From Candidatus Wolframiiraptor gerlachensis (GTDB taxonomy: Archaea > Thermoproteota > Nitrososphaeria_A > Caldarchaeales > Wolframiiraptoraceae), in the NCBI GenBank assembly GCA_021323375.2, contig JAJPCT020000003.1, forward strand, positions 1-46,995: a stretch of 46,995 bases of DNA. The letters run 5' to 3'. Of the stretch, positions 574-14,864 are shown piece after piece. The notes under the pieces were generated by a model. That model saw only the letters and a list, made by a program, of their open reading frames with translations. It was not told where the DNA came from and did no database searches. A program made the translations under genes and the position numbers. Numbering within the stretch: position 1 is the stretch's first letter; every line of letters begins with the position of its first letter.

Positions 574-1062
574 TCACGGCAGCAGCACTGAGGCCGGGTA
601 GATCTTGCCGGACGCGCTGTGGAGCGTGACCTCCACGGTTATCCCTGGGCTCGGCGCCCCCACTGTCAGCTGGAACTGGGCGACCTCGCCGGGATTGCAG
701 GTCACCTGCAGGTTTCCTATGGCTTCGGATGCAATCGTGCACGTCCCGCCCACCACGTCGAGCGCATTGACAGCGAAACCCGCGGGCGGGTTAGCTATCG
801 GCTGGCCGTTGATGTAGATGTTGTCGATTGTCGCCGACGCGGTTCCGGTGTTCTTGGCCGTTATGAAGATGTTGTACTGGTTCGGCGCGCCAGCTACGGG
901 AACTGCGTAGATATTCGTTACCTCGAATTTTTCGTACTTCGTGAATATTCCAACCAGCCCTGTCGCCCAGAATGCTACGGCGATGGCGATGACGATGGCG
1001 ATGGCGACAAGGATTACCGTTGCGACAACAGGGCTTATACCAGACCTATTCCTCAACATCAA
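574..1062 (-). CDS. Archaeal type IV pilin
   Basis: This is a 162-residue pilin subunit. It starts with a short positive leader, MMLRNRSG, followed by ISPVVATVILVAIAIVIAIA, the classic class III (prepilin peptidase) signal and hydrophobic assembly helix; cleavage is expected just before ISP, after the Gly. The rest is a beta-rich extracellular domain, with two Cys in the second half that may form a disulfide. It is the last gene of a minus-strand series with the TadC/FlaJ-like protein and two Roadblock proteins, so it is probably a substrate of that machine. A degraded copy of its C-terminus lies at 31-180. Pilin against archaellin cannot be decided from sequence, but no archaellum accessory genes are visible, so pilin is preferred. 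Confidence 0.9.
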   Translation of the reverse strand: MMLRNRSGISPVVATVILVAIAIVIAIAVAFWATGLVGIFTKYEKFEVTNIYAVPVAGAPNQYNIFITAKNTGTASATIDNIYINGQPIANPPAGFAVNALDVVGGTCTIASEAIGNLQVTCNPGEVAQFQLTVGAPSPGITVEVTLHSASGKIYPASVLLP

Positions 1063-1137
1063 CAGATATAAAGGTAATACCTTGATAAAAGAGTTTCTCC
1101 CCCATCATCAGAATGTCTAAAAAGTCTGGTAATCTCC

Positions 1138-2904
1138 TTAGCCGTATTGTGTTGGCAGGGTTATGAGCTGGACGCTCATGGTCCCGGCTATCCAGACGGC
1201 CAGAAGCGTTATCACGGACATTATTATCGCGTGCTTGAACCCTCCCGCCAGGGTCCCGTCGGCGATCTTCCCGGCCACGAGGCCGCTTATAACAGCCACA
1301 AGCACAACAGGTGGAAGGAACATGTGGACGAACTCTGATATCGAGATATAGATCCTCGCGATCTGGAGCAGCCCCTTCATGAAGACGACGAGGATAACCA
1401 CGACCGCGACGAGCATGACGGCCGTCATGTATGGTATGAGCATGAGGGGCCTCAGAGTAGCCCTCTTCTGCCTCTCCATCTCCTCCAAATCCTCCATGAA
1501 TGTGGTCAGCGTATCAAGGGTCTCAGGAGCGCCTCCGCCAACATCAATCGAGTCTATCAGGATAAACATGCCGGCCCTCGCAAGCCATCCATGAACCCTC
1601 CTCTCAAAATCCCTGTAAATAGCTCTGAGGGAGTTCCCCCAGCCAATCTGCCTACTCATGAGCTTGAGATGCTTCGTGAACCCGCCATAATCCCTATCCG
1701 AGAGAGTCCTGATACACTTCTCGGGGCTCATCCCAGTCTTCCGGGTCTCGGTCAAGTCCCTTAGAAAACGCGTCAAGCCCTGGAGAACGGACATGTTCTC
1801 CTTGCCATACTTCTCCCAGGCAACAGCGCCCGGCAGAAACAGGACTATAAAGCCGAGGCAGAGGCCGATAGTCGCCTCATAGCCCATATCAAGGCCCATA
1901 AGCCTCCTAAGCTGGACAATCAGATCTGACGTCAGGCTAAAGGGCGGAATATACCTGAGCGGCTCAGCATAGAACGGCACCACGAAGAGGACCATGAATA
2001 TCATCCCTGCCGGCATCCCGGCGAGAAAAGCCTTGAAAGGCCTCTTATCCGTGAACGGATACTTCGGCTGAGAGATGTCGGCGAGATAGATGAACATCCC
2101 AGCCATAAGGGGCATGATGAGATAGGCGAAGATCACGAACTGCTCGGCCGGAAACGTGAAATACTCGCTCGGAAGAGCCCTAGAGACTATATAGATGATA
2201 TAGAGGACAAGGGAGATCATCATGACGGTCGCCGCATAGGACTCCATAAGCATGCCAAGCCTCTCGCCAACAATCCTCATGTTCGCAGTCCTACTCTGAA
2301 AGATCACCTCAGTCTTCCTGATCAGGAAGTGGACCACATCACCACCGCTCCTCAGCGTCGAGACATAGCCCATCAGCAGATCCCTATACTCCTTAGACGG
2401 AATGTTCCTCGCCATGTCCTCTATAGCGGAGACCGGGTCCTCGCCGGTCGCCTCAACCCTCAGCTCCGCAACCCTCGCAATCTTGGCCAAATTCGGCATA
2501 AGCTCGCTCTTAGAAAGCCTCTTCAAGCTCGTGTAGGGCGGGACGCCGCCAGTCGCCATGACAGCGAGATAAGTCGCCGCATAAGGAACCTCGCTCTCAA
2601 AAACCGAGGCAATCGAGGAGGCCTGAACATAGGGATAGAAGACCCCCATCAACAAGACCAGCAGCGGCACAGCCATAACAATAAGCGAGAACAGGCTCCG
2701 AGTAACCAGATACAGGATAAAGGCCAGGGGCACGCAAGCCAGGGCAGCTATGACCGTGATCCCGGCGACAGTCGCCGCATAAGCCTCCGGATGAACCCTC
2801 ATCACGGCGGCCTCAAGCTTCGAGGAGATCCCCGGGAAGATCCTGAGAAGAAGGGATCCCAGACCTCTAAAACTAGCATAGAAGAAGCCATACATGTTAT
2901 CCAT
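1138..2904 (-). CDS. TadC/FlaJ-like type IV pilus membrane platform protein
   Basis: This 588-residue polytopic membrane protein has two copies of the type II secretion F (T2SSF) fold. The first half has a soluble helical part (about 105-215) between membrane-helix groups. The second half repeats this arrangement, with the soluble part at about 375-490. The doubled form is usual for archaeal FlaJ/TadC-like platform proteins. In this family the platform sits in the cytoplasmic membrane and converts turning of the hexameric ATPase into pilus assembly. The matching ATPase starts divergently at 4086. The gene follows the Roadblock gene at 2937-3305 by 32 bases and precedes the pilin by 75 bases, so co-transcription is likely. 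The substrate specificity is unknown. Confidence 0.88.
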   Translation of the reverse strand: MDNMYGFFYASFRGLGSLLLRIFPGISSKLEAAVMRVHPEAYAATVAGITVIAALACVPLAFILYLVTRSLFSLIVMAVPLLVLLMGVFYPYVQASSIASVFESEVPYAATYLAVMATGGVPPYTSLKRLSKSELMPNLAKIARVAELRVEATGEDPVSAIEDMARNIPSKEYRDLLMGYVSTLRSGGDVVHFLIRKTEVIFQSRTANMRIVGERLGMLMESYAATVMMISLVLYIIYIVSRALPSEYFTFPAEQFVIFAYLIMPLMAGMFIYLADISQPKYPFTDKRPFKAFLAGMPAGMIFMVLFVVPFYAEPLRYIPPFSLTSDLIVQLRRLMGLDMGYEATIGLCLGFIVLFLPGAVAWEKYGKENMSVLQGLTRFLRDLTETRKTGMSPEKCIRTLSDRDYGGFTKHLKLMSRQIGWGNSLRAIYRDFERRVHGWLARAGMFILIDSIDVGGGAPETLDTLTTFMEDLEEMERQKRATLRPLMLIPYMTAVMLVAVVVILVVFMKGLLQIARIYISISEFVHMFLPPVVLVAVISGLVAGKIADGTLAGGFKHAIIMSVITLLAVWIAGTMSVQLITLPTQYG

Positions 2905-2936
2905 GAAGCCCAGGTCTCAAGCCACCCCCAGCAAGC

Positions 2937-3305
2937 CTATTCCGAGAGATAGGCCTCGAGAAGGAGCTCCACGTAGCCGAGATTCGGGTTTTGCCTCGTC
3001 AAGCAGACCATATAGTATCCCTTATACTGCCTGATTAGGATGAATCTCCCATTATCAAGCTGTATATTGAACCTCTTATAACCCTTGGCGCCCATGAGCT
3101 CTATCACGGCGGATATGGCGCCGCAGACAGCCGCAGCAGCCGCGGCAATATACTCCGAGTTGAAGTTCGGGTTATCGCTCTCATGAGCTATTGGCATACC
3201 ATCCTCGGAAACAGCCTCAACAGCGTCAATCCAGCCCCGGCTGTTCATCTTGATCGCGCGGACAAGCCCGGCCAGCAGCCTCTCCTCAGCGCTCGTGATC
3301 ATCAC
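2937..3305 (-). CDS. Soluble Roadblock/LC7 domain protein (copy 1)
   Basis: A 122-residue protein made of a single Roadblock/LC7 domain. Members usually dimerise and bind small Ras-like GTPases, as MglB does with MglA. The features seen are RGWIDAVEAVSEDGMPIA (central strand and turn), a long Ala-rich helix (EYIAAAAAAVCGAI) and a C-terminal NPNLGYVELLLEAYLSE. It is close to the protein at 7891-8247, which has RGWVDAIIIVSQDGAPLA and NPNLGF..LVFEAYLS at the same positions, so the two are paralogues. It overlaps the upstream membrane-anchored Roadblock gene by four bases, which suggests tight translational coupling and perhaps a heterodimer. Confidence 0.85.
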   Translation of the reverse strand: MMITSAEERLLAGLVRAIKMNSRGWIDAVEAVSEDGMPIAHESDNPNFNSEYIAAAAAAVCGAISAVIELMGAKGYKRFNIQLDNGRFILIRQYKGYYMVCLTRQNPNLGYVELLLEAYLSE

Positions 3306-3976
3306 TTAAACCTCCCCAAGCTCTCCGACAAATATGCCCTTAGGAGATCCCTAACCTCCTCAACGCCGAACTCGGATCCACCGCCAACCGTGAGCGCATA
3401 CACCTCGGACTCGCCAATCCTCCCAACGAGGAAGAGCATTACCCTCTCTTCGCCCTCTGAGACCATGTAGCTGAACCCGGGGTTAAGCCTCCGGACAAGG
3501 GAGATGAAGTCGGCGACGGAGGCTGCAACCCTATCATCCTCACCAACATTATACGAGTCAATCGGTATCCCAGATTGATTGAGAAGTATCACAGACTTCA
3601 AGCCCAACATGGATGCAACCTCCTCTAGCGAGGCAAACCCAAACTCCTCACCCGCCTCAGCGGGCTTAATCTCGAGGCTCTCAAGCGGCCTCGGCGGAGG
3701 CGGCGCGGGCTTAACCTCGGCCTTGGCAGCAGGCTTAGTAGCTACACTAGGCCTAGGCGCAGCGGGCTTGGAAACAGCCGGCCTAGAAGATGTTGGTGGA
3801 GGGGCTGGAGGAGCCGCTACACTAGGAGCTACAGGCCGCGGAGGGCCTACCATCTTACGAGCCGCAGACCTGACAAGAAGAAGTGAGGCAACGGAGAGCG
3901 CGATCGAGACAACGGCTAAAATTACTATTAGGAGGATGAGGAATGATAACTCGCTAATGAAGGGTAAGCCATCCAT
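3302..3976 (-). CDS. Membrane-anchored Roadblock-like protein with Pro/Ala linker (copy 1)
   Basis: A 224-residue protein with one N-terminal membrane helix (about 10-36, SFLILLIVILAVVSIALSV), a Pro/Ala/Lys-rich flexible linker (about 42-95) and a C-terminal Roadblock-like domain (about 110-224). The linker would hold the domain away from the cytoplasmic face. The domain keeps the SVILLNQSGIPIDSYN strand-turn pattern of Roadblock proteins. It resembles the protein at 8254-8784 in layout and sequence (shared ..EDDRVAASVADF / ..EHGARAAASFAEL). It is first in a minus-strand operon with the soluble Roadblock, TadC/FlaJ and the pilin, which suggests that it recruits a GTPase module to the pilus base. 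Confidence 0.8.
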   Translation of the reverse strand: MDGLPFISELSFLILLIVILAVVSIALSVASLLLVRSAARKMVGPPRPVAPSVAAPPAPPPTSSRPAVSKPAAPRPSVATKPAAKAEVKPAPPPPRPLESLEIKPAEAGEEFGFASLEEVASMLGLKSVILLNQSGIPIDSYNVGEDDRVAASVADFISLVRRLNPGFSYMVSEGEERVMLFLVGRIGESEVYALTVGGGSEFGVEEVRDLLRAYLSESLGRFK

Positions 3977-4008
3977 CTCCAGCTAGTAAATAAACGGTAT
4001 TAAGCCGC

Positions 4009-4081
4009 TTATAATCCTTCTCTCACCGGCCTCCCGCCGGATCGAAACATATATCTCCTCTGCACGAGGATATAGGTGGCG
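4009..4081. promoter_or_regulatory. Divergent promoter region and SD for the pilus ATPase gene
   Basis: The 109-base gap between the divergent genes contains a TATA-like ttataa (4009-4014) about 33 bases before the minus-strand start at 3976, and acatatat (about 4047-4054) about 35 bases before the ATPase start. The sequence aggtgg lies 7 bases before the ATG at 4086 and matches the archaeal anti-SD. Assigned by eye. Confidence 0.45.
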
Positions 4082-4085
4082 AGGA

Positions 4086-7000
4086 ATGGGCTTGGCGAAG
4101 AAGGGGAAGTCCGAGGAGCCGCCGAACCCCTGGAAGGGCATAGAGGTGAAGCCCATCCCAGAGGACTATGAGGTGCTGGATCGGTATGCTATCAGGGAGG
4201 GGCTGGCTGAGGTTGTGATCGCAACACCCCCTGGCGAGACCCCCGAGCCAACATACTTCGCAGTAGAGGTTCAGCTCACGCCACAGGAGGCCCTAGCGCT
4301 GGAAAAGCTGAAGGATATACTCTCGAAGGAGCTGGAGCCGCCTAAGCCCGGCGAGGAGGAGGATGCTAAGAGAATCCTCCTAGAGACGGCCGACAAGCTC
4401 CTGAAAAAATATGAGCGGGCCCTTGGGAGATTTGACGAGGAGTCGAGGCAGAAGCTATTCTACTATCTCGAGAGGGATATGACAGGATTCGGCCCCCTCA
4501 ACATAATAATGGAGGATTATAGGATCGAGGACGTCTCATGCGATGGCGTAAACATCCCGATATATGTCTGGCACAGGGACTATGAGAGCATCCCAACAAA
4601 CATAATGTTCACGGATCGAGATGCTCTCGACGACTACATAATCCAGCTAGCCCACAAATCCGAGAAACACATATCATCAGCATTCCCGATACTCGACGCG
4701 ATGATCTATGGCAAGCATAGGCTCGCCGCGACATTCAGGGAGGAGATCTCGCCACGCGGAAGCACATTCACTATAAGAAAATTCAGGGAGAAGCCTTTCA
4801 GCATAACAGAGCTGCTACAGTCTGGACTCCTCAGCCCGGAGATGGCCGCATATTTCTGGCTATTGATAGAGCATAAGGCGAACATACTCGTGGCTGGCGC
4901 GACTGGGAGCGGAAAGACTACGATCCTAAACGCGCTGATGTGCTTCGTAAAGCCTAGAATGAAGATCGTAACATGCGAGGAGACAGCCGAGCTAAACATA
5001 CCAACAGAAAACTGGGTAAGATTCGTGACACGAGAAAGCTATGGGCTCGGAGCACAGAAAATAGGGGAAATCACCTTATATGATCTGGTCAAGACAAGCC
5101 TCAGATACAGGCCAGACTACCTCATAGTCGGAGAGGTAAGAGGAGAGGAGGCATTCGTCCTATTCCAGGCCATAGCTAGCGTTTCTTGGGACACGCCGAT
5201 ATTGATAAGAGATGTTCAAGGTGGGGGGCCGAGACTCGTCAGAATTGGGGAATTCGTGGACCAATTTTATGAACCATCAGAGGAAAGGGTGCCGAAATTT
5301 ATTAATGGATTCGAGGTGATGACTCTTAGCAAGAGTGGGGAGGTTTGTTGGAAACCAATCCGCTATGTCCTAAGACACAGGACAAACAAGATCTACAAGA
5401 TAAGGTATGTTGGTGGAGAGGTTAGGGCCACAGGGTCACATAGCGTCTTCGTGCTGGATGAGGACTCGCTAACGATAAGAATGAAAAGAGTCAGCGAGCT
5501 AAAGCGTGGGGACATTCTCGTAAGCTTCCTAAAGAGACGCGAGGAGGATTCTTCGAACCCGAGGTTGGATCTAATAGAAATCTTAGGAGATCGACGTAAG
5601 GATTTCGTTGACGGCCTCCCACCGAACATTAAAGCTCTAGTAGGCAGAAACCCCGTGAGCCTGGCAACATACCTAGAGATTGAGAGATCCCGCGATACTA
5701 GGGAGAATCTGAGGATAAGGCGATGGCATACCGGGAACTGGGTTCCAGCAGTCCTAGAGGTTGACGAGGACTTGGCATTTGTTATGGGCGTTTACCTGGC
5801 TGATGGTTGCGTAAAGGAGCATAAGGGTAAGAGCCTTTGCTTCAGCTTAGGACCAAGGAGAAGAGATGTCGAGGAGAAGGTAATCAAGATATTTTGGGAG
5901 AAATTCAAGCTTAAGCCGATAATAGACGATAAGGGTAGCTATCATATAGTAACCTTTAACTCGACTATACTCGCGGAGCTCTTCAAGAAGCTTATGGGAG
6001 GAAAGTTGGAAGAGAAGCATGTGCCGAGCTTTCTATGGCGCGCGCCTAAGAGGATAATTAAGGCATTCCTGAGCGGGTATGCGGCGGGTTCGCGTAGAAA
6101 GGTGAGGAATAGAAAGGATGGGTGCTATGTCATTAAGAAAGCTATGCTCGCGTGCGAGATCTCTTGGCTCGCGCGGATGACAGGCTTGAACTCTTATATC
6201 ATTAGGGAGGGTCACGGGCATTATGGCTCATATAATGTCTTAGGGCTTAAGGATGAGGTAAAGCCGCCGAGCGCGAATCTAGTGCCCCTTAAGCCGATCA
6301 TCAGCCTATACAAGAGTTTAAATCCATCCAACATGCCTTGGAATTTCACACACGTATTTAATGGCAAAAGGAGGTTCATTAGCAGAGAGAAAGCCCGGGT
6401 AGTCTTAAACTGGATTCTGCAAAAAAGAAGACGCGAGCCAGAGGATAAGGATCATGAAATCTTGGCAAGGCTGAATCTGCTACTCCAGAGCGATATAGCT
6501 TTGGCTCCGGTGCTTGAAGTGATTGAGGAAAGCTATGATGGATACGTTTATGACATTTCTGTTCCTGAGACCGAGGCATTTTATGGCGGATCAACACCGG
6601 TCCTCCTTCACAACACGGGTCACGGCGGCCTCTCAACTATTCATGCTGAGAATATAGAGTCTGTGATGAAGAGACTTGTAAGTCCTCCGATGAATATTCC
6701 GCCTAGCCATATTCCGCTCTTGGATGCTGTGGCGCTTGTTGATAGGGTTCGCCTGCCTAGGCCGATTGATGGGAGGACCTATGCTAGGAGGATTAGGTAT
6801 GTGTGGGAGGTTGTTGATTATGGGAAGTACGTGACGATCGCTGAGTGGAATCCAGCGACTGATCAGTTCGTGACGAATTTCACAGACAGCATCGTTTTGG
6901 ATAAGATAGCCGTTAAAACCGCAAAGACAAAAGAGGAGATATTAGCTGAGATTGATAGGAGGGCAAGAATACTCAAAAACATGTTGGAAAGGGGTATGCT

Positions 7001-7364
7001 CGAGATAAGCGATGTAGCTAAGGAGGTGTATGCATACTATTCTAATCCTGAGCAGGTGCTGAGGAAATATGGGATAGCCGTGGAGGAGATCCAGGTCCCG
7101 GTGGGATCTTCTAGGGGGGGTGCCGGTAGCTTTGGGGCCGAGTCCTATAGGGCGGCGAGGGCTTTGGCGGAGGAGGATGGCGAGGCTGCGATCGCCGAGA
7201 AAGTGCTCAGCCTCCTCAGGCAGCATGGTGGAGTATATCCGCTGTGGAGGATCTTTGTCGAGACCCCGGCCCCGAAGATCATGGTCTTCAAGGCTCTGAA
7301 GAGGCTGAGGGAGAGCGGGAAAATAGAGATGTCGAGATCAATGGTGGTTCTGAGGGGAGGCTAA
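4086..7364 (+). CDS. FlaI/TadA/PilT-type secretion ATPase precursor, interrupted by an intein
   Basis: A 1092-residue precursor; removing the intein (residues 365-843) leaves a 613-residue ATPase. Exteins show the N-terminal domain with YLERDMTGFGPLN (about 127-139), Walker A GATGSGKT (271-278), an Asp-box TCEETAELN, a Walker B-like LIVGEVRGEEAFVLFQA (just before the intein) and the His-box TGHGGLSTIHAEN right after it. The family forms hexamers on the cytoplasmic side of the membrane and drives pilus assembly or secretion with the TadC/FlaJ platform, here encoded at 1138-2904. The C-terminal tail (about 1025-1092) looks like a small winged helix and extends beyond the usual core. An aggtgg ribosome site supports the ATG at 4086. 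The gene runs convergently into the GTPase gene at 7388. Confidence 0.93.
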   Translation: MGLAKKGKSEEPPNPWKGIEVKPIPEDYEVLDRYAIREGLAEVVIATPPGETPEPTYFAVEVQLTPQEALALEKLKDILSKELEPPKPGEEEDAKRILLETADKLLKKYERALGRFDEESRQKLFYYLERDMTGFGPLNIIMEDYRIEDVSCDGVNIPIYVWHRDYESIPTNIMFTDRDALDDYIIQLAHKSEKHISSAFPILDAMIYGKHRLAATFREEISPRGSTFTIRKFREKPFSITELLQSGLLSPEMAAYFWLLIEHKANILVAGATGSGKTTILNALMCFVKPRMKIVTCEETAELNIPTENWVRFVTRESYGLGAQKIGEITLYDLVKTSLRYRPDYLIVGEVRGEEAFVLFQAIASVSWDTPILIRDVQGGGPRLVRIGEFVDQFYEPSEERVPKFINGFEVMTLSKSGEVCWKPIRYVLRHRTNKIYKIRYVGGEVRATGSHSVFVLDEDSLTIRMKRVSELKRGDILVSFLKRREEDSSNPRLDLIEILGDRRKDFVDGLPPNIKALVGRNPVSLATYLEIERSRDTRENLRIRRWHTGNWVPAVLEVDEDLAFVMGVYLADGCVKEHKGKSLCFSLGPRRRDVEEKVIKIFWEKFKLKPIIDDKGSYHIVTFNSTILAELFKKLMGGKLEEKHVPSFLWRAPKRIIKAFLSGYAAGSRRKVRNRKDGCYVIKKAMLACEISWLARMTGLNSYIIREGHGHYGSYNVLGLKDEVKPPSANLVPLKPIISLYKSLNPSNMPWNFTHVFNGKRRFISREKARVVLNWILQKRRREPEDKDHEILARLNLLLQSDIALAPVLEVIEESYDGYVYDISVPETEAFYGGSTPVLLHNTGHGGLSTIHAENIESVMKRLVSPPMNIPPSHIPLLDAVALVDRVRLPRPIDGRTYARRIRYVWEVVDYGKYVTIAEWNPATDQFVTNFTDSIVLDKIAVKTAKTKEEILAEIDRRARILKNMLERGMLEISDVAKEVYAYYSNPEQVLRKYGIAVEEIQVPVGSSRGGAGSFGAESYRAARALAEEDGEAAIAEKVLSLLRQHGGVYPLWRIFVETPAPKIMVFKALKRLRESGKIEMSRSMVVLRGG
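5178..6614 (+). mobile_element. 479-residue intein with degenerate LAGLIDADG endonuclease, inserted in the His-box of the pilus ATPase
   Basis: Excision joins ..LFQAIA to TGHGGLSTIH.., which restores the conserved family sequence exactly, so the borders are Ser365 and Asn843 with Thr844 as the +1 residue. Splicing motifs seen: block A SVSWDTPILIRD (Ser in place of the usual Cys), block B TGSH (449-452), block F-like YDGYVYDISVPETEAFYGG, and block G VLLHN followed by Thr. An endonuclease domain sits between them: the first LAGLIDADG helix is LAFVMGVYLADGC (563-575, acidic residue kept). The second, FLSGYAAGSR (661-670), has lost the expected Asp, so cleavage is probably weak or absent. Splicing itself looks intact. 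Confidence 0.93.
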
Positions 7365-7387
7365 GGCTGAGAGCCCGCAGCCCTCCC

Positions 7388-7894
7388 CTACTCGATCATT
7401 TCCAGCAAGGTCTTCAACAGATTGACCGCGCTCTCCCTGTTGAGGGCGATAGTCGGTATTATCGGGATCTCCGGGGGAGCCTTAAGGGAGTATCGCATTA
7501 CCTTCTCGGGGATCATGTTCCCCCCGTCAGCCTTATTCGCGGCGATAACATGGGGCACGCCGGGAAAATTCCTCCTAAAGTAGTCGTATACGAATGCGGC
7601 GTCCAGAAGGCTTCTTGGATCTTGAGAATCGACCATGAGTATGTATCCATCCATCCCCTTGGCCAGAACCCGCCACATGAAGAAGAACCTCCGCTGTCCA
7701 GGAGTCCCAAAGATCCTAACACGCTGGCCATCAATCTCTAGGATCCCGAAGTCTAGAGCCACGGTCGTGGTCTGCTTGACTGTCTCTACGAGAAGCCTCC
7801 TATCAGACTCCAGTATCTTCCCGCATAGCGTCTTTATGAGGGTGGTCTTCCCCGCGTTGAAGGGCCCTGTAACAACGATCTTGTAGGTCTTCAT
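7388..7894 (-). CDS. Small Ras-like GTPase (MglA-like, COG2229-type)
   Basis: A 168-residue single-domain GTPase. Motifs: P-loop GPFNAGKT (10-17), switch I Thr in QTTTVALDF (41-49), G3 region FGTPGQRRF (62-70) in which the usual Asp of DxxG is Gly, and G4 NKAD (120-123). The GTPGQ variant is typical of the MglA/COG2229 type GTPases that work with Roadblock regulators. It overlaps the upstream Roadblock gene (7891-8247) by four bases and ends the operon membrane-Roadblock, Roadblock, GTPase. It runs convergently to the pilus ATPase gene. Proposed role (inference): a nucleotide-controlled switch for placing or activating the pilus machine, with the Roadblock proteins as regulators. Confidence 0.88.
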   Translation of the reverse strand: MKTYKIVVTGPFNAGKTTLIKTLCGKILESDRRLLVETVKQTTTVALDFGILEIDGQRVRIFGTPGQRRFFFMWRVLAKGMDGYILMVDSQDPRSLLDAAFVYDYFRRNFPGVPHVIAANKADGGNMIPEKVMRYSLKAPPEIPIIPTIALNRESAVNLLKTLLEMIE

Positions 7895-8247
7895 CTCGAG
7901 AGATATGCCTCGAATACTAGGTTTATGAAGCCGAGGTTTGGGTTGGGCTTAGTCACAGCGACGACATAATAGTCCCTATACCTTCTGATGAGGAGATGGC
8001 GCTTCTCCCCGAGCTTCACGTCCACGGCATCAAATCCCCTCGAGTTGATGAGCTCGAGAACGGCGTCCGTCGCCCCAGCTATCGATGATGTGGCGGCCGC
8101 GACATATTCCGGGTCGATATCAATATTAGCGCTATATGCTAGTGGCGCGCCATCTTGTGAAACTATGATTATCGCGTCCACCCATCCCCTACAACTAATC
8201 ATGATGTCCTCGATCAGGGAATTGAGCTCCGAGCGGATAGACTCCAC
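7891..8247 (-). CDS. Soluble Roadblock/LC7 domain protein (copy 2)
   Basis: A 118-residue single Roadblock/LC7 domain. The motif RGWVDAIIIVSQDGAPLA, the helix EYVAAATSSIAGATDAVLEL and the tail NPNLGFINLVFEAYLSR align with the copy at 2937-3305. It is translationally coupled: its start lies 7 bases after the membrane-anchored Roadblock gene and its end overlaps the GTPase by four bases. By analogy with MglB and eukaryotic Roadblock proteins it would bind the co-encoded GTPase as a dimer, either as activating protein or as scaffold. Which of the two soluble copies partners this GTPase cannot be read from the sequence. Confidence 0.87.
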   Translation of the reverse strand: MESIRSELNSLIEDIMISCRGWVDAIIIVSQDGAPLAYSANIDIDPEYVAAATSSIAGATDAVLELINSRGFDAVDVKLGEKRHLLIRRYRDYYVVAVTKPNPNLGFINLVFEAYLSR

Positions 8248-8253
8248 GTCACC

Positions 8254-8784
8254 TCACCTCCTCCTGCCAATAATGCTCTCAACATATTCTTGTAGTATTT
8301 CTCGGGCATATTTCGTATCCGTCACCAGCTTAGGGCCGCCTATCACGAGGCTGTAGAGGGTCACATCGCCCACCCTCTTCAACTCCATTATAAAGCTTAT
8401 AATGCTGTTCCCGAATATAAGGACTCTCGTTGGAAATCCCAGGCTTTTTAGAACGTTTACTAGCTCCGCAAAGGAGGCGGCTGCCCTAGCCCCATGCTCC
8501 TCGGCTATGTTGTAGGTTTCAACGACGAGTCCCTGATCATCGAAGATCATAAGAGCCTCGGCTCTAAGGAGTACTGCTACCTCAGCCAAAGTATTAACGC
8601 GTCTGGCAGGCAACTCTCTAACCTCCAGTACCTCTACGAGGTTTTCTTGACTGGGCTCCATCAGTAGCGCTTCAGATCCTAGCCCGGCCATTTTTTTAGA
8701 ACCTTTAATGGTTAGGATTAGAGCCGCGATCGCTACTGCTAATGATATAATAGCAAGGGCTATCACAAGCAGGTAAGAATCCAT
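8254..8784 (-). CDS. Membrane-anchored Roadblock-like protein (copy 2)
   Basis: Taken from the ATG at 8784 this is a 176-residue protein: MDSYLLVIALAIISLAVAIA gives a membrane helix at the very N-terminus, followed by a short linker and a Roadblock-like domain (about 55-176) with EALMIFDDQGLVVETYN. It matches the protein at 3302-3976 but lacks the long Pro/Ala linker. A longer frame reaches an ATG at 8844, but the 20 extra residues are polar and would bury the membrane helix, so the internal start is preferred; aggag lies directly against it, which is closer than usual. First gene of the operon with the soluble Roadblock and GTPase. Confidence 0.75.
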   Translation of the reverse strand: MDSYLLVIALAIISLAVAIAALILTIKGSKKMAGLGSEALLMEPSQENLVEVLEVRELPARRVNTLAEVAVLLRAEALMIFDDQGLVVETYNIAEEHGARAAASFAELVNVLKSLGFPTRVLIFGNSIISFIMELKRVGDVTLYSLVIGGPKLVTDTKYAREILQEYVESIIGRRR

Positions 8785-8886
8785 CTCCTGACCAAACTTA
8801 GTGTGACAGCTCGCCCAGATATATTCACTTCTTGGGGATCTCATAAGAAGAAAGCTTAATAGCCTTGTCCATTTCTTAACTGTAGA

Positions 8887-9666
8887 ATGACTTATAGGGT
8901 CCAGTTCTTCATAGCTGATGATGAACTTTCGAAGAAAATGTTAAAAGTGATAGATCAAGTGACAAAACTTCTGACAGAGAGGTTCGGCCCTAGAATGACA
9001 TCGTCTTCGAAGGATTTCATAGCCTACGTCCTCACAAATAATACCGTGTCACTTAGCCTCGAGCAGGGGGCGAGCGATACCATTCAGCTGGATATATACT
9101 TCGTGTTGGAGACATATCGGGAGGAGCTTAAGGCAAGGTTTAAAGTGGCGGACTTTCCAGCGGCCATACTAGATGACCGTACTTATATTGCAGAAAAGGC
9201 GCTCGAAATAGCCTCCAAGCTATATAGCCTGCTAAAGACATCTCGTGGAATCAATGATGACGAGCTATTAGCTGGGCTTAAGAAGCTCAGCATCCAAGAA
9301 CCTGTAGCGGAGAGCAAGATAGTTGCTGAAAGATCTTTAAGATCTGCTCTCTCGATCCTGCAAAAAGGAGTGGAGCCGGCAATTAGAGTCGCTAGTAAGG
9401 TTGCCTCGGGTATAATTAGAACAGCTCAGCTATCCACGTCCTCCCCTTTAGGGGGAACGGAAGTAGAAGTTGCTGTAAGTGCTCGACCCAAGTCGGAGCC
9501 AGCTCCTAAAGGCTCGCCAACAGATGGGATCCTCTTCGAGCGTAACGTGATAAGGGCAGGCATATCAGAGTGCTTAGCCAAGCTTGAGAGGCTTCGGGAG
9601 GAGGGCAAAATTGACGAAAATGCTTACAGGAAGATGAAAGCTGTTTACGATGCTTTCTTAAGTTAA
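8887..9666 (+). CDS. Protein of unrecognised domain family with C-terminal helical hairpin
   Basis: A 259-residue soluble protein that I do not recognise. Its N-terminal half (1-130) shares a pattern with the N-terminus of the protein at 11779-12609: MTYRVQFFIADDELSKK against MPYMLSFFIAEDELSDK, later ILDDRTYIAEKALEIASKLYSLL against KLGEAV..GPEAVEITSKIYSLL. A low-complexity linker (about 185-220) leads to a short C-terminal hairpin, ECLAKLERLREEGKIDENAY, like SHOCT-type oligomerisation motifs. A Roadblock gene follows at 9734; in the paralogue the Roadblock domain is fused, so the two products here probably interact. A TATA-like gcttaata at 8853 lies about 30 bases before the ATG, which fits leaderless transcription. 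Confidence 0.75.
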   Translation: MTYRVQFFIADDELSKKMLKVIDQVTKLLTERFGPRMTSSSKDFIAYVLTNNTVSLSLEQGASDTIQLDIYFVLETYREELKARFKVADFPAAILDDRTYIAEKALEIASKLYSLLKTSRGINDDELLAGLKKLSIQEPVAESKIVAERSLRSALSILQKGVEPAIRVASKVASGIIRTAQLSTSSPLGGTEVEVAVSARPKSEPAPKGSPTDGILFERNVIRAGISECLAKLERLREEGKIDENAYRKMKAVYDAFLS

Positions 9667-9733
9667 TCCATATTCTTGGGAAACATATATATCCAGCTTT
9701 ATCTATTAATACCTCTCTGGCAGGAGTAGGTGG

Positions 9734-10117
9734 GTGATTGAAGTAATGGCATCTAGGTTCGAGTTAATGCGTGAGGTACTGACCCAGCTCTCTCATGGAA
9801 ATCCAGACATATTGGGGTCGGCTATAGTCAGCGAGGATGGGCTTGTCATAGCAAGTGCCCTACCCGAGGGATACGATGATCAGAGGGTCTCAGCGGTTAC
9901 TGCGGCCCTCAGTAGCATAGCTAATCGCGCGGCTCGGCAGATAGCCCTCGGAGAGGTACAGAGAATGATGATATTCGCCGAGAAGGGCGGCGCCATCCTA
10001 TGCTCCGGCAAAAAGGCCTCGCTCGTGGTCCTTACGAAGCCCAACGCCAAGATAGGCCTCGTGCTAATGGATGTGATGGAGGCGGTTGACAAGCTCAAGG
10101 ATGTGTTGGGCTTCTAG
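9734..10117 (+). CDS. Soluble Roadblock/LC7 (MglB-like) protein
   Basis: A Roadblock/LC7 domain protein of 127 residues from GTG 9734, or 123 from ATG 9746. Both starts have support: aggag seven bases before the GTG, and ggtgat seven bases before the ATG. The domain reads LGSAIVSEDGLVIASALPEG, then a helix VSAVTAALSSIANRAARQIA, MMIFAEKGGAILC and LTKPNAKIGLVLMDVMEAV. This is nearer to classic MglB-type Roadblock proteins and to the C-terminal domain of 11779-12609 than to the copies at 2937 and 7891. It lies 67 bases after the unrecognised-domain gene and converges on the radical SAM gene, overlapping it by four bases. Confidence 0.87.
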   Translation: MIEVMASRFELMREVLTQLSHGNPDILGSAIVSEDGLVIASALPEGYDDQRVSAVTAALSSIANRAARQIALGEVQRMMIFAEKGGAILCSGKKASLVVLTKPNAKIGLVLMDVMEAVDKLKDVLGF

Positions 10118-11577
10118 CCTTTCCCGGCAGCTATCACGGCCTCGGCCCTACTCTCTCTTACAAGCTTTCCTCTCAGGCATCCTGGATCAGGGGCCAAGTA
10201 ATCCCCATAGTAGGCGTATGCCCTAGCCCTACATCCTCCGCAAACATATCTGTACTCGCAGCTTCCACATGGCTCCTTTAGGAGATCCTTGTCCTTGAGA
10301 TCGTTTATCACCTTGCTGTTCTCCCATATATCCCTCAGCCTCTCACTTCTCAGGCTTCCAACTGGGATTGGTAGGAAGACGCATGGCGTGACCGTGCCAT
10401 CGGGCTGTATTGCCATGTATATTCTGCCCGCACCACATCCACCTACAAACTCCGCAACTGCCCTCAACGTGGAGCTGTGGGGCATCGTGAAATGTGTTGG
10501 AAGGACATCCTCACCACTACTCATCTGCCAAGATACGCGGGCCAGCTGCGGGGCCGTTGAGACTACCTGTATTCTGGACCTAGTCGCCTCACGATAGATA
10601 TTCCTAAGCACATCCTCCCTCTCCTCCGGGGTTAAGTCCAACTCAACCGCTTCTTTTCCCCTACCTGTTGGGATGAAGTTAAAGAACACGACCCTATTCA
10701 CCCCAAGCTCCTCGCCCAGCCTAACCATATCCTCGATCCCATTCTTGTTGAGCTTGGTGACCGTGGCGGCGATCCCAACCGAGACCCTGCCCCCACCATA
10801 CTTGACTACATTCCTGATCCCTTTAACAGCCAGCTCCCAGGCGCCCTTAATCCCCCTAAACATATCATGCTCCTCGGGCTTCGTGGAGTCGAGGCTGACT
10901 TCAACATATCTCAACCCGGCCTCTATCGCGCGCCTAGTGAACTCCTCATCCGCAAACCTTATTCCATTGGTCGCGACAGCCATGTAGATTCCCCTTCTCG
11001 CACCCTCCTCAACCACGCGGAGGAAATCTGGATGAATCGTAGGCTCACCGCCGCTGAGGGCCACGAGCGGTATCCCCATCTCATCCACCTGCCTAATCAC
11101 CTCAAGCCTCTCCTCAGAAGTAAGCTCGCCCGGCCCGGGAATAGGCCCCGCATTCTGATAACAATGAATACACTTGAGATTACATGCATTGGTGAAGTTC
11201 CATACTACGAGGAATGGCGCCGCCAGCTTCTGCGGCACAGTCACGCCATAGCTCAGCAGGCTTCTAAGAACAAGCTCAATCCCCCTCCTAATCGCGGGAT
11301 CACTTATTCCCTGCTCGAACTCCTCACGCCTTATATGCATAAACTTCAACGCCGCCCCGAAAAGCAGCTTACAGAGATAATAGTCCAGCATGCAGCTGAA
11401 GCTAATATTCCCCTCATCCTTATCCCTCCGCGCAAGCATGCTCAAAACATGCTCAAGCCTCGTTCTCGCGCCGCTGGGATCGGGCTCCAGAAACCTCCTA
11501 AGGATAGCTCTCGAGATCCTACTCCCAAAAATCGTCCTAGCAACCTTGATACTATCAGCTTCGAGCGACAAGCCCAC
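10114..11577 (-). CDS. Radical SAM/SPASM domain protein
   Basis: A 487-residue enzyme with an N-terminal helical extension (1-140), a radical SAM core starting with NACNLKCIHC (the CxxxCxxC that binds the SAM-bound 4Fe4S cluster), GGEPTIHPDF, and a C-terminal SPASM region rich in Cys (CGGCRA near 455-460, then C near 478) for extra Fe-S clusters. Such enzymes modify peptides or tetrapyrroles (PqqE, AhbC/AhbD, anSME types); the substrate here is unknown. It begins at GTG 11577, about 35 bases after an AT-rich TATA-like box. It is divergent from the fused Roadblock gene and converges on the Roadblock gene at 9734, so it sits inside the Roadblock region, which may hint at a post-translational modification role. 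Confidence 0.85.
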   Translation of the reverse strand: MGLSLEADSIKVARTIFGSRISRAILRRFLEPDPSGARTRLEHVLSMLARRDKDEGNISFSCMLDYYLCKLLFGAALKFMHIRREEFEQGISDPAIRRGIELVLRSLLSYGVTVPQKLAAPFLVVWNFTNACNLKCIHCYQNAGPIPGPGELTSEERLEVIRQVDEMGIPLVALSGGEPTIHPDFLRVVEEGARRGIYMAVATNGIRFADEEFTRRAIEAGLRYVEVSLDSTKPEEHDMFRGIKGAWELAVKGIRNVVKYGGGRVSVGIAATVTKLNKNGIEDMVRLGEELGVNRVVFFNFIPTGRGKEAVELDLTPEEREDVLRNIYREATRSRIQVVSTAPQLARVSWQMSSGEDVLPTHFTMPHSSTLRAVAEFVGGCGAGRIYMAIQPDGTVTPCVFLPIPVGSLRSERLRDIWENSKVINDLKDKDLLKEPCGSCEYRYVCGGCRARAYAYYGDYLAPDPGCLRGKLVRESRAEAVIAAGKG

Positions 11578-11741
11578 TTGCCGGGAGTTAGGAGATTATT
11601 ACTAGGGAATAAATTTTCACCTACCCATTAGAGGATGATTCCTGAATAGGTGAAAGCCCGATCATCGAGGGCTATGAGCTTCGCTATCCGAGGTGAACCA
11701 ATTGAGTAGAATTCATAATACTTAGGGCTGAAAAAGCCTAA

Positions 11742-11760
11742 ATAGGATAAACAATCCTAT
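11742..11760. repeat. Perfect 7-bp inverted repeat before the fused Roadblock gene
   Basis: ataggat, five bases, atcctat. It lies 18 bases before the ATG at 11779 and next to a TATA-like cctaaata (11737-11744), so it may be an operator or a 5' hairpin. A second, imperfect hairpin (ttaggg.../...gcctaa) lies just upstream at about 11722-11741. Function unproven. Confidence 0.5.
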
Positions 11761-11778
11761 AGCTTGGGCCAGTACGAC

Positions 11779-12609
11779 ATGCCCTATATGTTATCATTTT
11801 TCATAGCTGAGGATGAGCTCTCGGATAAGATAGCCTCAATATTAAATGATCTTATCGGAAAGGTGAAGGGCTCCGCCAAGATAAGGTACTCAGAGTCCCT
11901 TGGGATGTCGATGACAAGTGTTAGGATAGGCCTGAAATCGGCCCTCGGAAGAGAGGATACTCTAGAGCTCAGGATACATTCGATGTTGGGGAAATATGTT
12001 GATTCCTTAAAGCTTAGGTATGGGTTGCCGGGGATCCCGGCGGTAAAGCTGGGCGAAGCTGTTCGCTGGGGACCGGAAGCGGTTGAGATAACCTCGAAAA
12101 TATATTCGCTATTGGCGGGGGGGGGAGGCGCATCAACGGCTGAGCAATTATTCTACAGCATCGCGAACTACATGCAAGGGCCGCGCGAGATTAGAGAAAT
12201 GCCGGAGGAGCAGGCTGCCCTAGGAGCCGATATAACGCTACAGATGAATAAAATCCAAGAAATCGTGGAATCTCTCAGAAGGGATAACCCGGATATAGCT
12301 GGCTGTGTTATCTTGAATGAGAAAGGGGGGGTTATAGCGCACAGCATCCCGCCCGAGATTGATGAAGAGAGGGTTTCTATGGTGTTTGCCACCCTTCGAA
12401 GCGCGGCCGAGAAGACGGCCCAGCATATGGCGCTTGAGAAGATGAGGCAGTTTGTGATCTTCGCGGAGGGGGGAGGAGCCCTCCTCCAGAGGCATGGCGA
12501 CCTCTTCCTGCTCGTATTCATGAAGCCCGACGCGAAGCTTGGAGCGGTGCTCATGGAGCTTGGATACGCTATTGAGAGGCTCGAGCAGGTCACCAAGGCA
12601 AAGTCCTAG
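11779..12609 (+). CDS. Fusion of unrecognised N-terminal domain with C-terminal Roadblock/LC7 domain
   Basis: From the ATG at 11779 this is a 276-residue protein. Residues 1-120 match the N-terminal domain of the protein at 8887-9666, and residues about 160-270 form a Roadblock domain (AGCVILNEKGGVIAHSIPPE, FVIFAEGGGALLQRHGD, MKPDAKLGAVLMELGYAIE) like the separate gene at 9734-10117. The ATG at 11779 is chosen over TTG 11764 because it aligns exactly with the start of the paralogue. No clear ribosome site is seen, so the message may be leaderless or nearly so. The gene precedes the radical SAM gene at 12616 by six bases, so the two probably form an operon. Confidence 0.82.
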   Translation: MPYMLSFFIAEDELSDKIASILNDLIGKVKGSAKIRYSESLGMSMTSVRIGLKSALGREDTLELRIHSMLGKYVDSLKLRYGLPGIPAVKLGEAVRWGPEAVEITSKIYSLLAGGGGASTAEQLFYSIANYMQGPREIREMPEEQAALGADITLQMNKIQEIVESLRRDNPDIAGCVILNEKGGVIAHSIPPEIDEERVSMVFATLRSAAEKTAQHMALEKMRQFVIFAEGGGALLQRHGDLFLLVFMKPDAKLGAVLMELGYAIERLEQVTKAKS

Positions 12610-12615
12610 CACGAT

Positions 12616-13623
12616 ATGATGGTGAAGGCGTCGCTTTACAAGAAAACCGGGGAAGATGCCGTATGCCTAGTATGTGAGAGGACCTGCAGGATAAGCCCCA
12701 ACCTCTACGGCGTGTGCGGAAATTATCGAAACGTTGGTGGAGAGCTTTTTCACGCCGGATACGGGATCCTAAGCGCCATCGAGAGCAGGCCGATTGAGAT
12801 CAAGCCCTTCTTCCATTACTGGCCAAATAGCACGGCCCTAACATTCTCCGGCTATGGATGCAACTTCTACTGCCCATGGTGCCAGAACAGCCACATAAGC
12901 TTCTCAAAGCCGCCGATAGGGGCAAAGCCGACCCCTCCCGAAACCCTCGTAGAAATGGCCCTGAGAAATCGGGATGAGGGGCTCTGCGCGAGCTTCAACG
13001 AGCCCGCAACACTCTTCGACTATCTCCTAGACGTTTTCGAGCTCGGCTCAAAGAGGGGGCTCTACGGCACCCTGGTGACAAATGGATACTTCACTGAACG
13101 CGCCATAGAGATGCTCATAGGGGCAGGCGCAGACGGATTCAGCATAGACATCAAGGGATGCCCATCCGCCAGAGGCGCCCTAACAACAATAGACCACCTC
13201 AAAGTCTTCAGAAACGCCCGGAAAATCCTAGACCTAGGAGGACATGTGGAGATGGTATACCTTGTAGTAACAGGATACAACGACTCAAGAGAATGCGCTG
13301 AATGGATCCTCGAAAAACACCTAGAATACTTGGGCCCGGAAACGCCAATACACATAAACAGATACTACCCGGCAAACTACTGGAAAGAGCCCCCAACACC
13401 CCTCAGCAAACTCCTAGAATTCAGAGAAATAGCCCTGAAAATGGGAATAGAATACGTCTACATCGGAAACGTGGGTTACCCCGATCTCGAGGACACAAAA
13501 TGCCCAAAATGCGGAAAGACCCTGATAAGACGGCGCAGTTATAGGGTTACATATTATAAACTTGATGGAGAAAGTTGCCCAAGATGTGGGTATGGAATAA
13601 AACTTCGGGGAGAGATTTCGTAA
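12616..13623 (+). CDS. AmmeMemoRadiSam-type radical SAM enzyme (PflA-like, AmrS-like)
   Basis: A 335-residue radical SAM protein of the pyruvate-formate-lyase-activase-like group. Motifs: an N-terminal Cys pair region (CLVCERTC), the cluster motif CNFYCPWC at about 79-86 followed by QN, and a C-terminal zinc-ribbon-like segment with CPKCGKTL and CPRCGYG. This whole layout is that of the AmrS proteins of the AmmeMemoRadiSam system, whose substrate is not established; the usual partners (Memo and AMMECR1) are not in this window. It follows the Roadblock fusion gene by six bases and has two consecutive ATG codons at its start. Alternative: another activase-like radical SAM enzyme. Confidence 0.82.
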   Translation: MMVKASLYKKTGEDAVCLVCERTCRISPNLYGVCGNYRNVGGELFHAGYGILSAIESRPIEIKPFFHYWPNSTALTFSGYGCNFYCPWCQNSHISFSKPPIGAKPTPPETLVEMALRNRDEGLCASFNEPATLFDYLLDVFELGSKRGLYGTLVTNGYFTERAIEMLIGAGADGFSIDIKGCPSARGALTTIDHLKVFRNARKILDLGGHVEMVYLVVTGYNDSRECAEWILEKHLEYLGPETPIHINRYYPANYWKEPPTPLSKLLEFREIALKMGIEYVYIGNVGYPDLEDTKCPKCGKTLIRRRSYRVTYYKLDGESCPRCGYGIKLRGEIS

Positions 13624-13813
13624 GTGGGCGAAATTTATCACAGCGAATATAATAGGTCTTATTCTTATTCTTATACGTGTTTCTACTATTTCAGCGGTCA
13701 TTAATTTCTCTCATTATGTAACTTTTATTATCTTGCTCCGGAACTTATTTATATAAGTATTCCTGATTCATCACCTCTTCCGTTGCAATAGCTCCTTCTG
13801 GAACAGGAGATTG

Positions 13814-14864
13814 TTATGCTTTTAGTACCTGTGTTTCTCTCAGCCCAAATAGAGGCAAAGTACGACAGTTTTTCTCTCTCCTGGATCGATTAAAAATTAT
13901 AATATACTCGCATTCACTATCAAATTGTGGTAGATTTTGAGGGGTTATTAAAACATTAATGGAGGTGATGGTGACTGTTTCATTGGCTCCTTTTGGAAGC
14001 TGGACGTCTACAAAAACAAAAAAGTAACTGTTCTCGCTTACCTTCTTAGGAGCAACTATCTTCACATCAAGAGGTACTGAAATTATTGATCCGCGGTTTA
14101 ATACGAATATTACTGCTGTCTTGTCGGGCACCTCTACTATCTGGGGGTTTCCTTCAGGTATCTGGACGAGTTTACCGTTCTCATATAATGCGACGCTATA
14201 GTTTCCCGGGAATATTCCAAATGCTACGGTTACGTTCTCGTTACTGGCTGTTGCCTTATGAGTAAACTTTTCGGGTGATACCTTTCCATTCCCGAGGGGC
14301 GTAACATAGACCTCATACAGCTTTCCTCTCTTCATGTTAATTATGCTGACGGTCAATGTGTATGGGAATACTATGTCAACCAGCCCACCTTCCTTTAAGT
14401 AAACCTTATTTGAGGAGAATATCCTACCCTCTCCGTTACGGCGAGAAATTGCACGATGCCTGTAAATCCATTGACACAGGCTTGGACATTGAGAGTGCCA
14501 TTTCCACCCGGGGTAAACTTAGAAGTTCTCCATTCAAACATGGTTCCGCTGCAGGTATGGATTTCTGCCTGACCACATCTATAGCCCAGATCCTAACAAT
14601 CCTAACACTTACAGGCCCATCATTCGATAGCATCAGCGTTAGCTCTTTCGTTAATACATCTTGCGATACTCCAACTGTTAGTGACTCAGACATCCTATCG
14701 GTATCAAAGATCCTCCGTGAATTTGACTCATTTAGAAAAAGTGCGTAGGAATTCTGCATTAGTATAACTAGCGGCACTATTATCATGAAGAATATCGCTA
14801 GAACTATTGCTCCTCCAGCAACCGCCGAGATACCTCTCCTCCGACCAACATTTCTCCTATACAT
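13814..14864 (-). pseudogene. Pilin-like exported protein gene broken by two frameshifts
   Basis: Three consecutive minus-strand frames read as one protein of about 350 residues if two single bases are restored. The first frame (from 14864) has RRRGISAVAGGAIVLAIFFM, a class III signal-like N-terminus, and runs to ..IVRIWAIDVVRQK. The second gives HTCSGTMFEWRTSKFTPGGN and VQACVNGFTGIVQFLAVTER. The third gives GRIFSSNKVYLKEGGLVDIV and on to the stop at 13814. The frame changes fall in short runs, gaaatc near 14560 and gaggg near 14430. It overlaps the next pilin-like gene by 8 bases. Either a young pseudogene or an assembly error in homopolymers. As it stands only a 142-residue N-terminal piece and an unanchored C-terminal piece are encoded. 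Confidence 0.8.

What the first reader, a model, noticed from the sequence alone, without database searches (positions are those of the whole stretch)
574..12609. Six Roadblock/LC7 domains and an MglA-like GTPase interleaved with a type IV pilus locus
Within 12 kb there are six Roadblock domains (2937, 3302, 7891, 8254, 9734 and the C-terminus of 11779), one Ras-like GTPase with the Asp-less GTPGQ motif, the pilus ATPase, its platform protein and a pilin. In bacteria MglA/MglB (GTPase plus Roadblock) sets the active pole of type IV pili. The tight coupling (4-base overlaps) suggests an archaeal counterpart, with Roadblock domains tethered to the membrane at the pilus base. This would be a GTP-controlled pilus switch and, as a whole, may be undescribed.
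Basis: partly seen in the sequence, partly recalled or inferred. Interest (0 to 1): 0.85.

Follow-up and report, generated by a model that had tools for sequence, protein, structure and literature searches.

The report
Archaeal pilus locus with MglA-like switch
A hot-spring archaeon carries, woven into the genes for its surface pili, a small GTP-binding protein of the kind that steers bacterial pili plus six Roadblock partner domains, two of them anchored in the membrane; the set is conserved across the family, and one related genus has lost the GTPase but kept the membrane-anchored partners with the pilus.

Summary
Observation confirmed. The window is a Caldarchaeales (Aigarchaeota) genome, nearest relative Candidatus Wolframiiraptor allenii. 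Within 574-12609 lie a T4P pilin, platform (T2SSF) and ATPase (interrupted by a 479-aa intein), one MglA-type GTPase (GTPGQ), and six Roadblock domains: four above the Pfam cut-off, and two N-terminally membrane-anchored ones confirmed through an AlphaFold2 model of 8254 (Foldseek top hit MglB). The neighbourhood is conserved: all 14 GTPase-bearing genomes of this family have it beside T4P genes. Two further lineages link such a GTPase and Roadblocks to T4P: two genomes of another Thermoproteota family, and Actinobacteria (21 of 25 loci). The deeper unit is a trio, TM-Roadblock > Roadblock > GTPase, which in Calditenuaceae lies away from T4P genes. One genus kept the TM-Roadblock/Roadblock pair between ATPase and platform while losing the GTPase genome-wide. 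Best reading: a membrane-tethered Roadblock scaffold, with an MglA-type GTPase as a separable switch, acting on the pilus motor. Switching, polarity and contacts are untested. Roadblock genes at archaeal T4P loci were already reported (Makarova 2016); the archaeal MglA-type GTPase, the membrane-anchored trio and the natural GTPase loss appear undescribed in the papers searched. New variant of a known kind.

The parts
574..1062 (-). archaeal type IV pilin (MMLRNRSGISPVVATVILVAIAIVIAIAVAFW...)
   Evidence: NCBIfam TIGR02537 archaellin/type IV pilin N-terminal 29.6 bits, above cut-off 20; orthologues beside T2SSF in the family
1138..2904 (-). pilus platform protein (T2SSF/PilC/UpsF-like)
   Evidence: Pfam PF00482 84 bits; NCBIfam UpsF/BasF/ArlJ below cut-off; dN/dS 0.05-0.07
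2937..3305 (-). Roadblock protein A (pair A, soluble), carries SEDG; no GTPase gene attached
   Evidence: PF03259 35.1 bits; belongs to the GTPase-uncoupled Roadblock clade, 98/96 support
3302..3976 (-). membrane-anchored Roadblock A: TM about 12-30, Pro/Ala linker, C-terminal Roadblock domain; overlaps 2937 by 4 nt
   Evidence: PF03259 14.6 bits, sub-threshold; same family as 8254, whose model is Roadblock; charge N-side -2, C-side +3
4086..7364 (+). pilus assembly ATPase (T2SSE/FlaI-BasE-like), with an in-frame intein
   Evidence: PF00437 99.3 bits and Intein_splicing 55 bits; NCBIfam FlaI 335 bits, below cut-off
5178..6614 (+). 479-residue intein inserted at QAIA|TGHGG of the ATPase
   Evidence: comparison with the intein-free orthologue L026; starts SVSWDT, ends HN, next residue T
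7388..7894 (-). MglA-type small GTPase (GPFNAGKTT, TTTVALDFG, FGTPGQ, ANKAD)
   Evidence: Pfam small-GTPase families; nearest PDB matches 8oun and T. thermophilus MglA 3t12, E 2.6e-14 for the latter; dN/dS 0.04-0.06
7891..8247 (-). Roadblock protein B (pair B), carries SQDG; overlaps the GTPase by 4 nt
   Evidence: PF03259 27.1 bits; GTPase-coupled group
8254..8844 (-). membrane-anchored Roadblock B: TM about 25-43, then Roadblock domain
   Evidence: AF2 model, mean pLDDT 82.5; Foldseek top hit M. xanthus MglB, E 2.5e-5, prob 1.00
8887..9666 (+). N-domain protein of unknown family; follows the ATPase and precedes a Roadblock gene in relatives
   Evidence: no Pfam family above cut-off; homologous to the N-terminus of 11764; found after the ATPase in genera g4 and g5
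9734..10117 (+). Roadblock protein C (SEDG)
   Evidence: PF03259 47.7 bits; conserved after ATPase and N-domain genes
11764..12609 (+). fusion of the N-domain with a Roadblock domain (natural fusion of the 8887 and 9734 types)
   Evidence: PF03259 34.6 bits at residues 166-251; AF2 mean pLDDT 85.6; Foldseek TMt 0.88 to archaeal Roadblock3 9jue

Best explanation
The locus encodes one type IV pilus with a built-in membrane-tethered Roadblock and MglA-type GTPase control module. Shown: the parts, their order, the orientation pattern of the anchor, conservation, and purifying selection. Inferred: each anchored Roadblock (8254, 3302) pairs with the soluble Roadblock encoded directly after it (7891, 2937) into a dimer held at the cytoplasmic face of the membrane. 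The B pair binds the GTPase translated from the overlapping gene and acts as its GAP or GEF platform, so that the GTPase is held or released at the pilus base and changes the activity or placement of the ATPase/platform motor. The A pair is a duplicate that lost its GTPase partner and acts as a direct scaffold or brake between ATPase and platform. Roadblock C and the N-domain proteins, transcribed with the ATPase, are further adaptors. Whether the output is extension or retraction, pilus number, or placement is unknown.
For: All 14 family genomes with the GTPase have it within a few kb of pilin, platform or ATPase genes. The common order is pilin < T2SSF < GTPase < Roadblock < TM-Roadblock | ATPase > N-domain > Roadblock C; it survives a reordering in Benthortus (L030) and a pair duplication in the window's genus, while radical-SAM and topoisomerase VI neighbours are absent from the fetched g5 and g3 loci. 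Strong A2-type Roadblock hits occur in exactly the 18 family genomes with the platform orthologue and in none of the 4 without it. Other lineages link the same kinds of gene to T4P: G279 and G215 (L171, L172) and Actinobacteria (21 of 25 well-flanked bacterial loci have Roadblock and T2SSE within 6 kb; one locus confirmed by Pfam). The GTPase tree needs at least 2 (most parsimoniously 3) changes of the T4P-linked label. GTPGQ and TTV are invariant in A1; Asp-Gly is nearly invariant in A2. The C-terminal side of the TM segment is the more positive in all 26 TM-Roadblocks. Low dN/dS.
Against: No interaction, GTPase activity or pilus phenotype has been tested. Calditenuaceae have the trio away from T4P genes (8 of 8 loci examined). 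Families f3 and f4 have T4P without A2-type Roadblock or this GTPase, so the module is not needed for a pilus. Genus g3 has Roadblock pairs without the GTPase. The anchored/soluble pairing is inferred from gene order only.
Confidence: 0.6

Rival explanations
1. The Roadblock pair is a structural or assembly adaptor of the pilus motor (between ATPase and platform), and the GTPase is an optional passenger or regulator; GTP switching is not the core function.
For: Pair kept between ATPase and platform in genus g3 (L129-L131) with no MglA-type GTPase in the genome. GTPase-free Roadblocks form one clade (98/96) with a charge reversal at position 16 (E to R/K) and fixed acidic residues at 7, 42 and 113, as if the partner changed. 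Pair A lies directly upstream of the platform gene in the window.
Against: In genera g2, g4, g5 and the G002/G006 group the pair is always joined to the GTPase, overlapping its start codon; the coupled state is the wider one. In Calditenuaceae the trio occurs away from the pilus genes.
Confidence: 0.25
2. The trio is an independent membrane signalling cassette of Thermoproteota that sits in the pilus locus by descent only, with no pilus function.
For: Trio or related sets unlinked to T4P in Calditenuaceae and in families f29 and f52; Group 4 archaeal mglA genes had no conserved neighbours (PMC4316618).
Against: Retained with T4P through rearrangements while other neighbours drift; absent together with T4P in 4 near-complete genomes; linkage seen in other lineages including bacteria.
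Confidence: 0.12
3. MglA-like polarity system in the strict sense: the GTPase marks one cell pole and directs pilus placement.
For: Family resemblance to MglA/MglB, which activates T4P at the leading pole of M. xanthus (PMC9481161, PMC7668184).
Against: No localisation data; no RomR/RomX- or SgmX-like gene was identified in the cluster (not searched systematically); the membrane anchor on the Roadblock is unlike MglB.
Confidence: 0.15

Closest known systems
MglA/MglB(/MglC) polarity module of Myxococcus xanthus (also Thermus, Bdellovibrio)
   Same: small GTPase lacking the G3 Asp plus Roadblock partner; linked in function to type IV pili; two kinds of Roadblock protein
   Different: here a GTPGQ/Thr G2 type instead of Group 1 TVPGQ/Arg; soluble and membrane-anchored Roadblocks; genes inside the pilus locus of an archaeon; Roadblock pair persists without the GTPase in one genus
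Archaeal Group 4 MglA (Wuichet and Sogaard-Andersen, PMC4316618)
   Same: archaeal, MglB-coupled, GTPGQ
   Different: Group 4 was reported almost only from methanogens plus one korarchaeon, with no conserved neighbours; here Caldarchaeales, with conserved T4P neighbours and a TM-Roadblock
Roadblock arCOG02603 genes in archaeal T4P loci (Makarova et al. 2016, PMC4858521)
   Same: Roadblock genes beside archaeal T4P genes
   Different: the text found mentions no Ras-like GTPase, membrane-anchored Roadblock or trio
Actinobacterial conservon CvnA-D (PMC13343842)
   Same: Roadblock plus MglA-family GTPase operon
   Different: conservons have a histidine kinase and CvnC; here T4P proteins and an anchored Roadblock
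Ragulator/LAMTOR with Rag GTPases (own knowledge)
   Same: Roadblock dimers tethered to a membrane as a platform for small GTPases
   Different: eukaryotic lipid-anchored LAMTOR1; here a TM helix fused to the Roadblock itself

Membership tests
MglA family, Groups 2-5 | G3 motif GTPGQ in place of DxxGQ | tested here: met
   FGTPGQ, invariant in the 20 sequences of A1; one further family copy (G002, not in A1) has GSPGQ
MglA family, Groups 2-5 | Thr in G2 instead of the Group 1 Arg | tested here: met
   TTV invariant in A1; criterion from PMC4316618
MglA family, Groups 2-5 | coupled to an mglB (Roadblock) gene | tested here: met
   4-nt overlap 7891/7894; the same start-codon overlap in the other family loci with both genes intact
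MglA Group 1 (M. xanthus type) | TVPGQ and intrinsic Arg in G2 | tested here: not met
   GTPGQ and Thr
MglA Group 4 (archaeal) | phylogenetic placement with methanogen Group 4 | not tested
   no named Group 4 reference in the tree
MglB | Roadblock/LC7 fold | tested here: met
   Pfam for 2937, 7891, 9734 and 11764; structure for 8254
MglB | conserved Asp-Gly of MglBs coupled to Groups 2-5 | tested here: met
   SEDG/SQDG in 2937, 7891 and 9734; absent from the TM-Roadblocks and from 11764
MglB | GAP/GEF activity towards its MglA | not testable with these tools
   biochemical
Archaeal type IV pilus locus | pilin with class III signal, T2SSE ATPase and T2SSF platform together | tested here: met
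Archaellum | arlH and other arl accessory genes in the cluster | tested here: inconclusive
   none among the annotated genes of 574-17053, but not searched with arl models; T2SSF scores UpsF 98 over ArlJ 56 bits, ATPase scores FlaI 335 bits, all below cut-off
GTP-controlled pilus switch | pilus output depends on GTPase nucleotide state | not testable with these tools
   needs genetics; genus g3 shows that a Roadblock pair exists at a T4P locus without this GTPase

The most novel reading that the evidence does not exclude
Thermoproteota have a general membrane-anchored Roadblock platform, a prokaryotic minimal analogue of Ragulator: TM-Roadblock plus Roadblock plus MglA-type GTPase. It was recruited to type IV pili in more than one lineage, and in one genus it now drives or brakes the pilus motor without any such GTPase.
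Probability: 0.2. Interest if true: 0.75.

Novelty: new variant of a known kind. Interest (0 to 1): 0.55.

Why it matters
How archaea regulate type IV pili is largely open, and the role of Roadblock genes at archaeal T4P loci has stayed a one-line remark since 2016. This locus gives a concrete and testable module: a tethered Roadblock pair, an MglA-type GTPase as a separable part, and a natural loss of the GTPase in one genus that separates the two roles. The same linkage in Actinobacteria suggests that joining MglA-type GTPases to pili is recurrent. It also offers a simple prokaryotic model of membrane-tethered Roadblock platforms, which in eukaryotes carry Rag GTPases.

Tried and rejected
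Profile-profile comparison of the TM-Roadblock and Roadblock families was too weak to decide (E 0.0007, prob 26; E 0.013, prob 3); the AF2 model and Foldseek decided it. Pfam on 8254 gave only a sub-threshold encapsulin hit, rejected. The N-domain of 8887/11764: no PDB sequence relative worth following, and Foldseek of the whole 11764 chain lists only the Roadblock half among its best 50; a thioredoxin-like topology (b-a-b-b-b-a-b-b-a, Pro at 'IPAVKIG') is my inference, unproven. A GTPase hidden in genus g3 was sought with a profile at E up to 10; only fragments, mostly in larger ORFs. The idea that the duplicated pair (2937/3302) is recent within the window's species was rejected: it forms one clade with genus g3. 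Laying the whole genome for scripts was not available. Complex prediction (GTPase with Roadblock) cannot be run with single-chain folding. Supplementary tables of PMC4858521 could not be read, so a small GTPase in their neighbourhood tables is not excluded. Names of the families called f24, f29 and f52 and of genus g3 were not established.
Full report
WHAT IS THERE. The window is contig C3 of an archaeal draft genome of 1.28 Mb in 27 contigs, 89% complete. The nearest named genomes are Candidatus Wolframiiraptor allenii (GTPase 96% identical) and W. sinensis (86%), order Caldarchaeales (order from PMC9246946). On the minus strand: pilin 574-1062, platform 1138-2904, Roadblock 2937-3305, membrane-anchored Roadblock 3302-3976; further right GTPase 7388-7894, Roadblock 7891-8247, membrane-anchored Roadblock 8254-8844. 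On the plus strand: ATPase 4086-7364, N-domain protein 8887-9666, Roadblock 9734-10117, N-domain/Roadblock fusion 11764-12609.

SIX ROADBLOCKS. Four pass the Pfam cut-off and are the only four such hits in the genome. The two anchored ones needed structure. A family alignment of 26 sequences (A3) gave a model of 8254 with 121 residues at pLDDT 90 or more, a TM helix and the a-b-b-a-b-b-b-a order. Foldseek returns MglB from M. xanthus first (E 2.5e-5, prob 1.00), then other Roadblock-type structures from Thermus, Streptomyces and Asgard archaea and Roadblock-like domains of Rag-family complexes. 3302 belongs to the same family. In all 26 members the stretch after the TM segment is more positive than the stretch before it, which by the positive-inside rule puts the Roadblock domain in the cytoplasm.

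THE GTPASE. The motifs are GPFNAGKTT, TTTVALDFG, FGTPGQ and NKAD; GTPGQ and TTV are invariant in 20 homologues. By the published criteria of PMC4316618 this is the MglA family outside Group 1: GTPGQ, Thr instead of Arg in G2, coupled to a Roadblock gene, and the Roadblock partner has the Asp-Gly pair. The nearest PDB relatives include Thermus MglA (3t12, E 2.6e-14). That paper places archaeal MglA (Group 4) almost only in methanogens plus one korarchaeon and found no conserved neighbours. I did not test placement within Group 4.

CONSERVATION. Among 40 relatives plus the window genome, the GTPase is in 14 genomes of the window's family (f1) and 9 of Calditenuaceae (f2), and in none of families f3 and f4. 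In all 14 it lies within a few kb of pilin, platform or ATPase genes. The common order is pilin < platform < GTPase < Roadblock < TM-Roadblock | ATPase > N-domain > Roadblock C. It persists through a reordering in Candidatus Benthortus (L030) and through a duplication of the TM-Roadblock/Roadblock pair in the window's genus. Neighbouring radical-SAM and topoisomerase VI genes stay only in some genera, so the module is kept beyond background synteny. A2-type Roadblock hits over 150 bits occur in the 18 family genomes that have the platform orthologue and in none of the four that lack it (G011, G015, G019, G021). dN/dS against the two nearest relatives is 0.04-0.06 for the GTPase and 0.05-0.09 for the soluble Roadblocks, like the platform (0.05-0.07) and topoisomerase VI (0.03).

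THE TRIO AND ITS HISTORY. In Calditenuaceae the trio TM-Roadblock > Roadblock > GTPase sits with no T4P gene nearby (8 loci examined), while their T4P locus lies elsewhere without Roadblocks. Related sets occur in families f29 and f52. In two f29 genomes (G279, G215) the MglA-type GTPase (GAPGQ), a small TM protein overlapping a Roadblock gene, a second Ras-like GTPase with DLGGE and a Roadblock C homologue surround platform, ATPase and pilin genes. Among bacteria, nearly all of them Actinobacteria, GTPases 38-43% identical to the window's lie beside a Roadblock gene and T2SSE ATPases in 21 of 25 loci with enough flank; Pfam confirms PilB, PilT, PilC and pilin genes with Roadblock and GTPase in one of them (L073). 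The label 'T4P-linked' needs three changes on the GTPase tree, two of them forced by well-supported branches.

A NATURAL EXPERIMENT. Genus g3 (G009, G012, G017; 95-98% complete) keeps the TM-Roadblock/Roadblock pair between ATPase and platform but has no MglA-type GTPase, by sequence or by profile. On the Roadblock tree the proteins without a GTPase gene attached, those of g3 and the 2937 type of the window's genus, form one clade (98/96): a single uncoupling. They differ from coupled ones at fixed positions: position 16 changes from acidic to basic, positions 7 and 42 become Glu in all nine, and position 113 changes from mostly Asn to Glu or Asp. I read this as a change of partner; that is inference.

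MECHANISM. Most likely the anchored and soluble Roadblocks of each pair form a dimer at the membrane. The B pair is the platform or GAP for the GTPase, and the A pair is a GTPase-free derivative acting directly at ATPase and platform. Shown: genes, fold, orientation pattern, conservation, selection. Inferred: dimer, GAP activity, motor contact. Unknown: what the pilus does in response, and whether poles are involved.

PRIOR ART. Makarova et al. [quoted passage not shown] In bacteria MglA/MglB and T4P are well known (PMC9481161, PMC7668184). Searches for archaeal Roadblock, GTPase and pili together gave nothing further, and the Wolframiiraptor paper does not mention pili. Subscription journals are not in the library.

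VERDICT. Real, conserved and of moderate interest: a new variant of the MglA/Roadblock-T4P association, with a membrane-anchored Roadblock and a natural GTPase loss that make the division of labour testable.

Noticed in passing
window 5178-6614 (+): 479-aa intein (LAGLIDADG-like region) in the pilus ATPase at QAIA|TGHGG; the orthologous ORFs of G001 (1095 aa) and G020 (1085 aa) have a similar length, G003 is intein-free.
   Followed up: partly
L073 and L070-L116 (Actinobacteria, many Coriobacteriia): Bacterial type IV pilus loci (PilB, PilT, PilC, pilin, PilD) with a Roadblock gene and an MglA-type GTPase between the ATPase genes; not found described in the papers searched.
   Followed up: partly
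L171:5773-6297 and L172:5494-6018: A second Ras-like GTPase with DLGGE next to Roadblock C in a Thermoproteota pilus locus, so two different small GTPases at one pilus.
   Followed up: no
L148:8410-8934 (G000:C4:30520-30846): A seventh, solitary Roadblock-like protein of 174 aa (90 bits with profile A2), with relatives in several genomes of the genus and in g5.
   Followed up: no
window 8887-9666 and 11764-12180 (+): N-domain without known family, probably thioredoxin-like by topology, once free beside a Roadblock gene and once fused to a Roadblock domain.
   Followed up: partly
window 13814-15336 (-): Three further small membrane or pilin-like ORFs; longer versions lie beside the pilus locus in other genera (HMM p14857 and p14436).
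   Followed up: no
window 10114-11577 (-): Radical SAM/SPASM protein with a NirJ/AhbD-like match below cut-offs, lodged between Roadblock C and the fusion gene; also in genera g1 and g4.
   Followed up: no
G000:C23:40434-40922: A second T2SSE-type ATPase (99 bits) elsewhere in the genome; its context was not examined.
   Followed up: no
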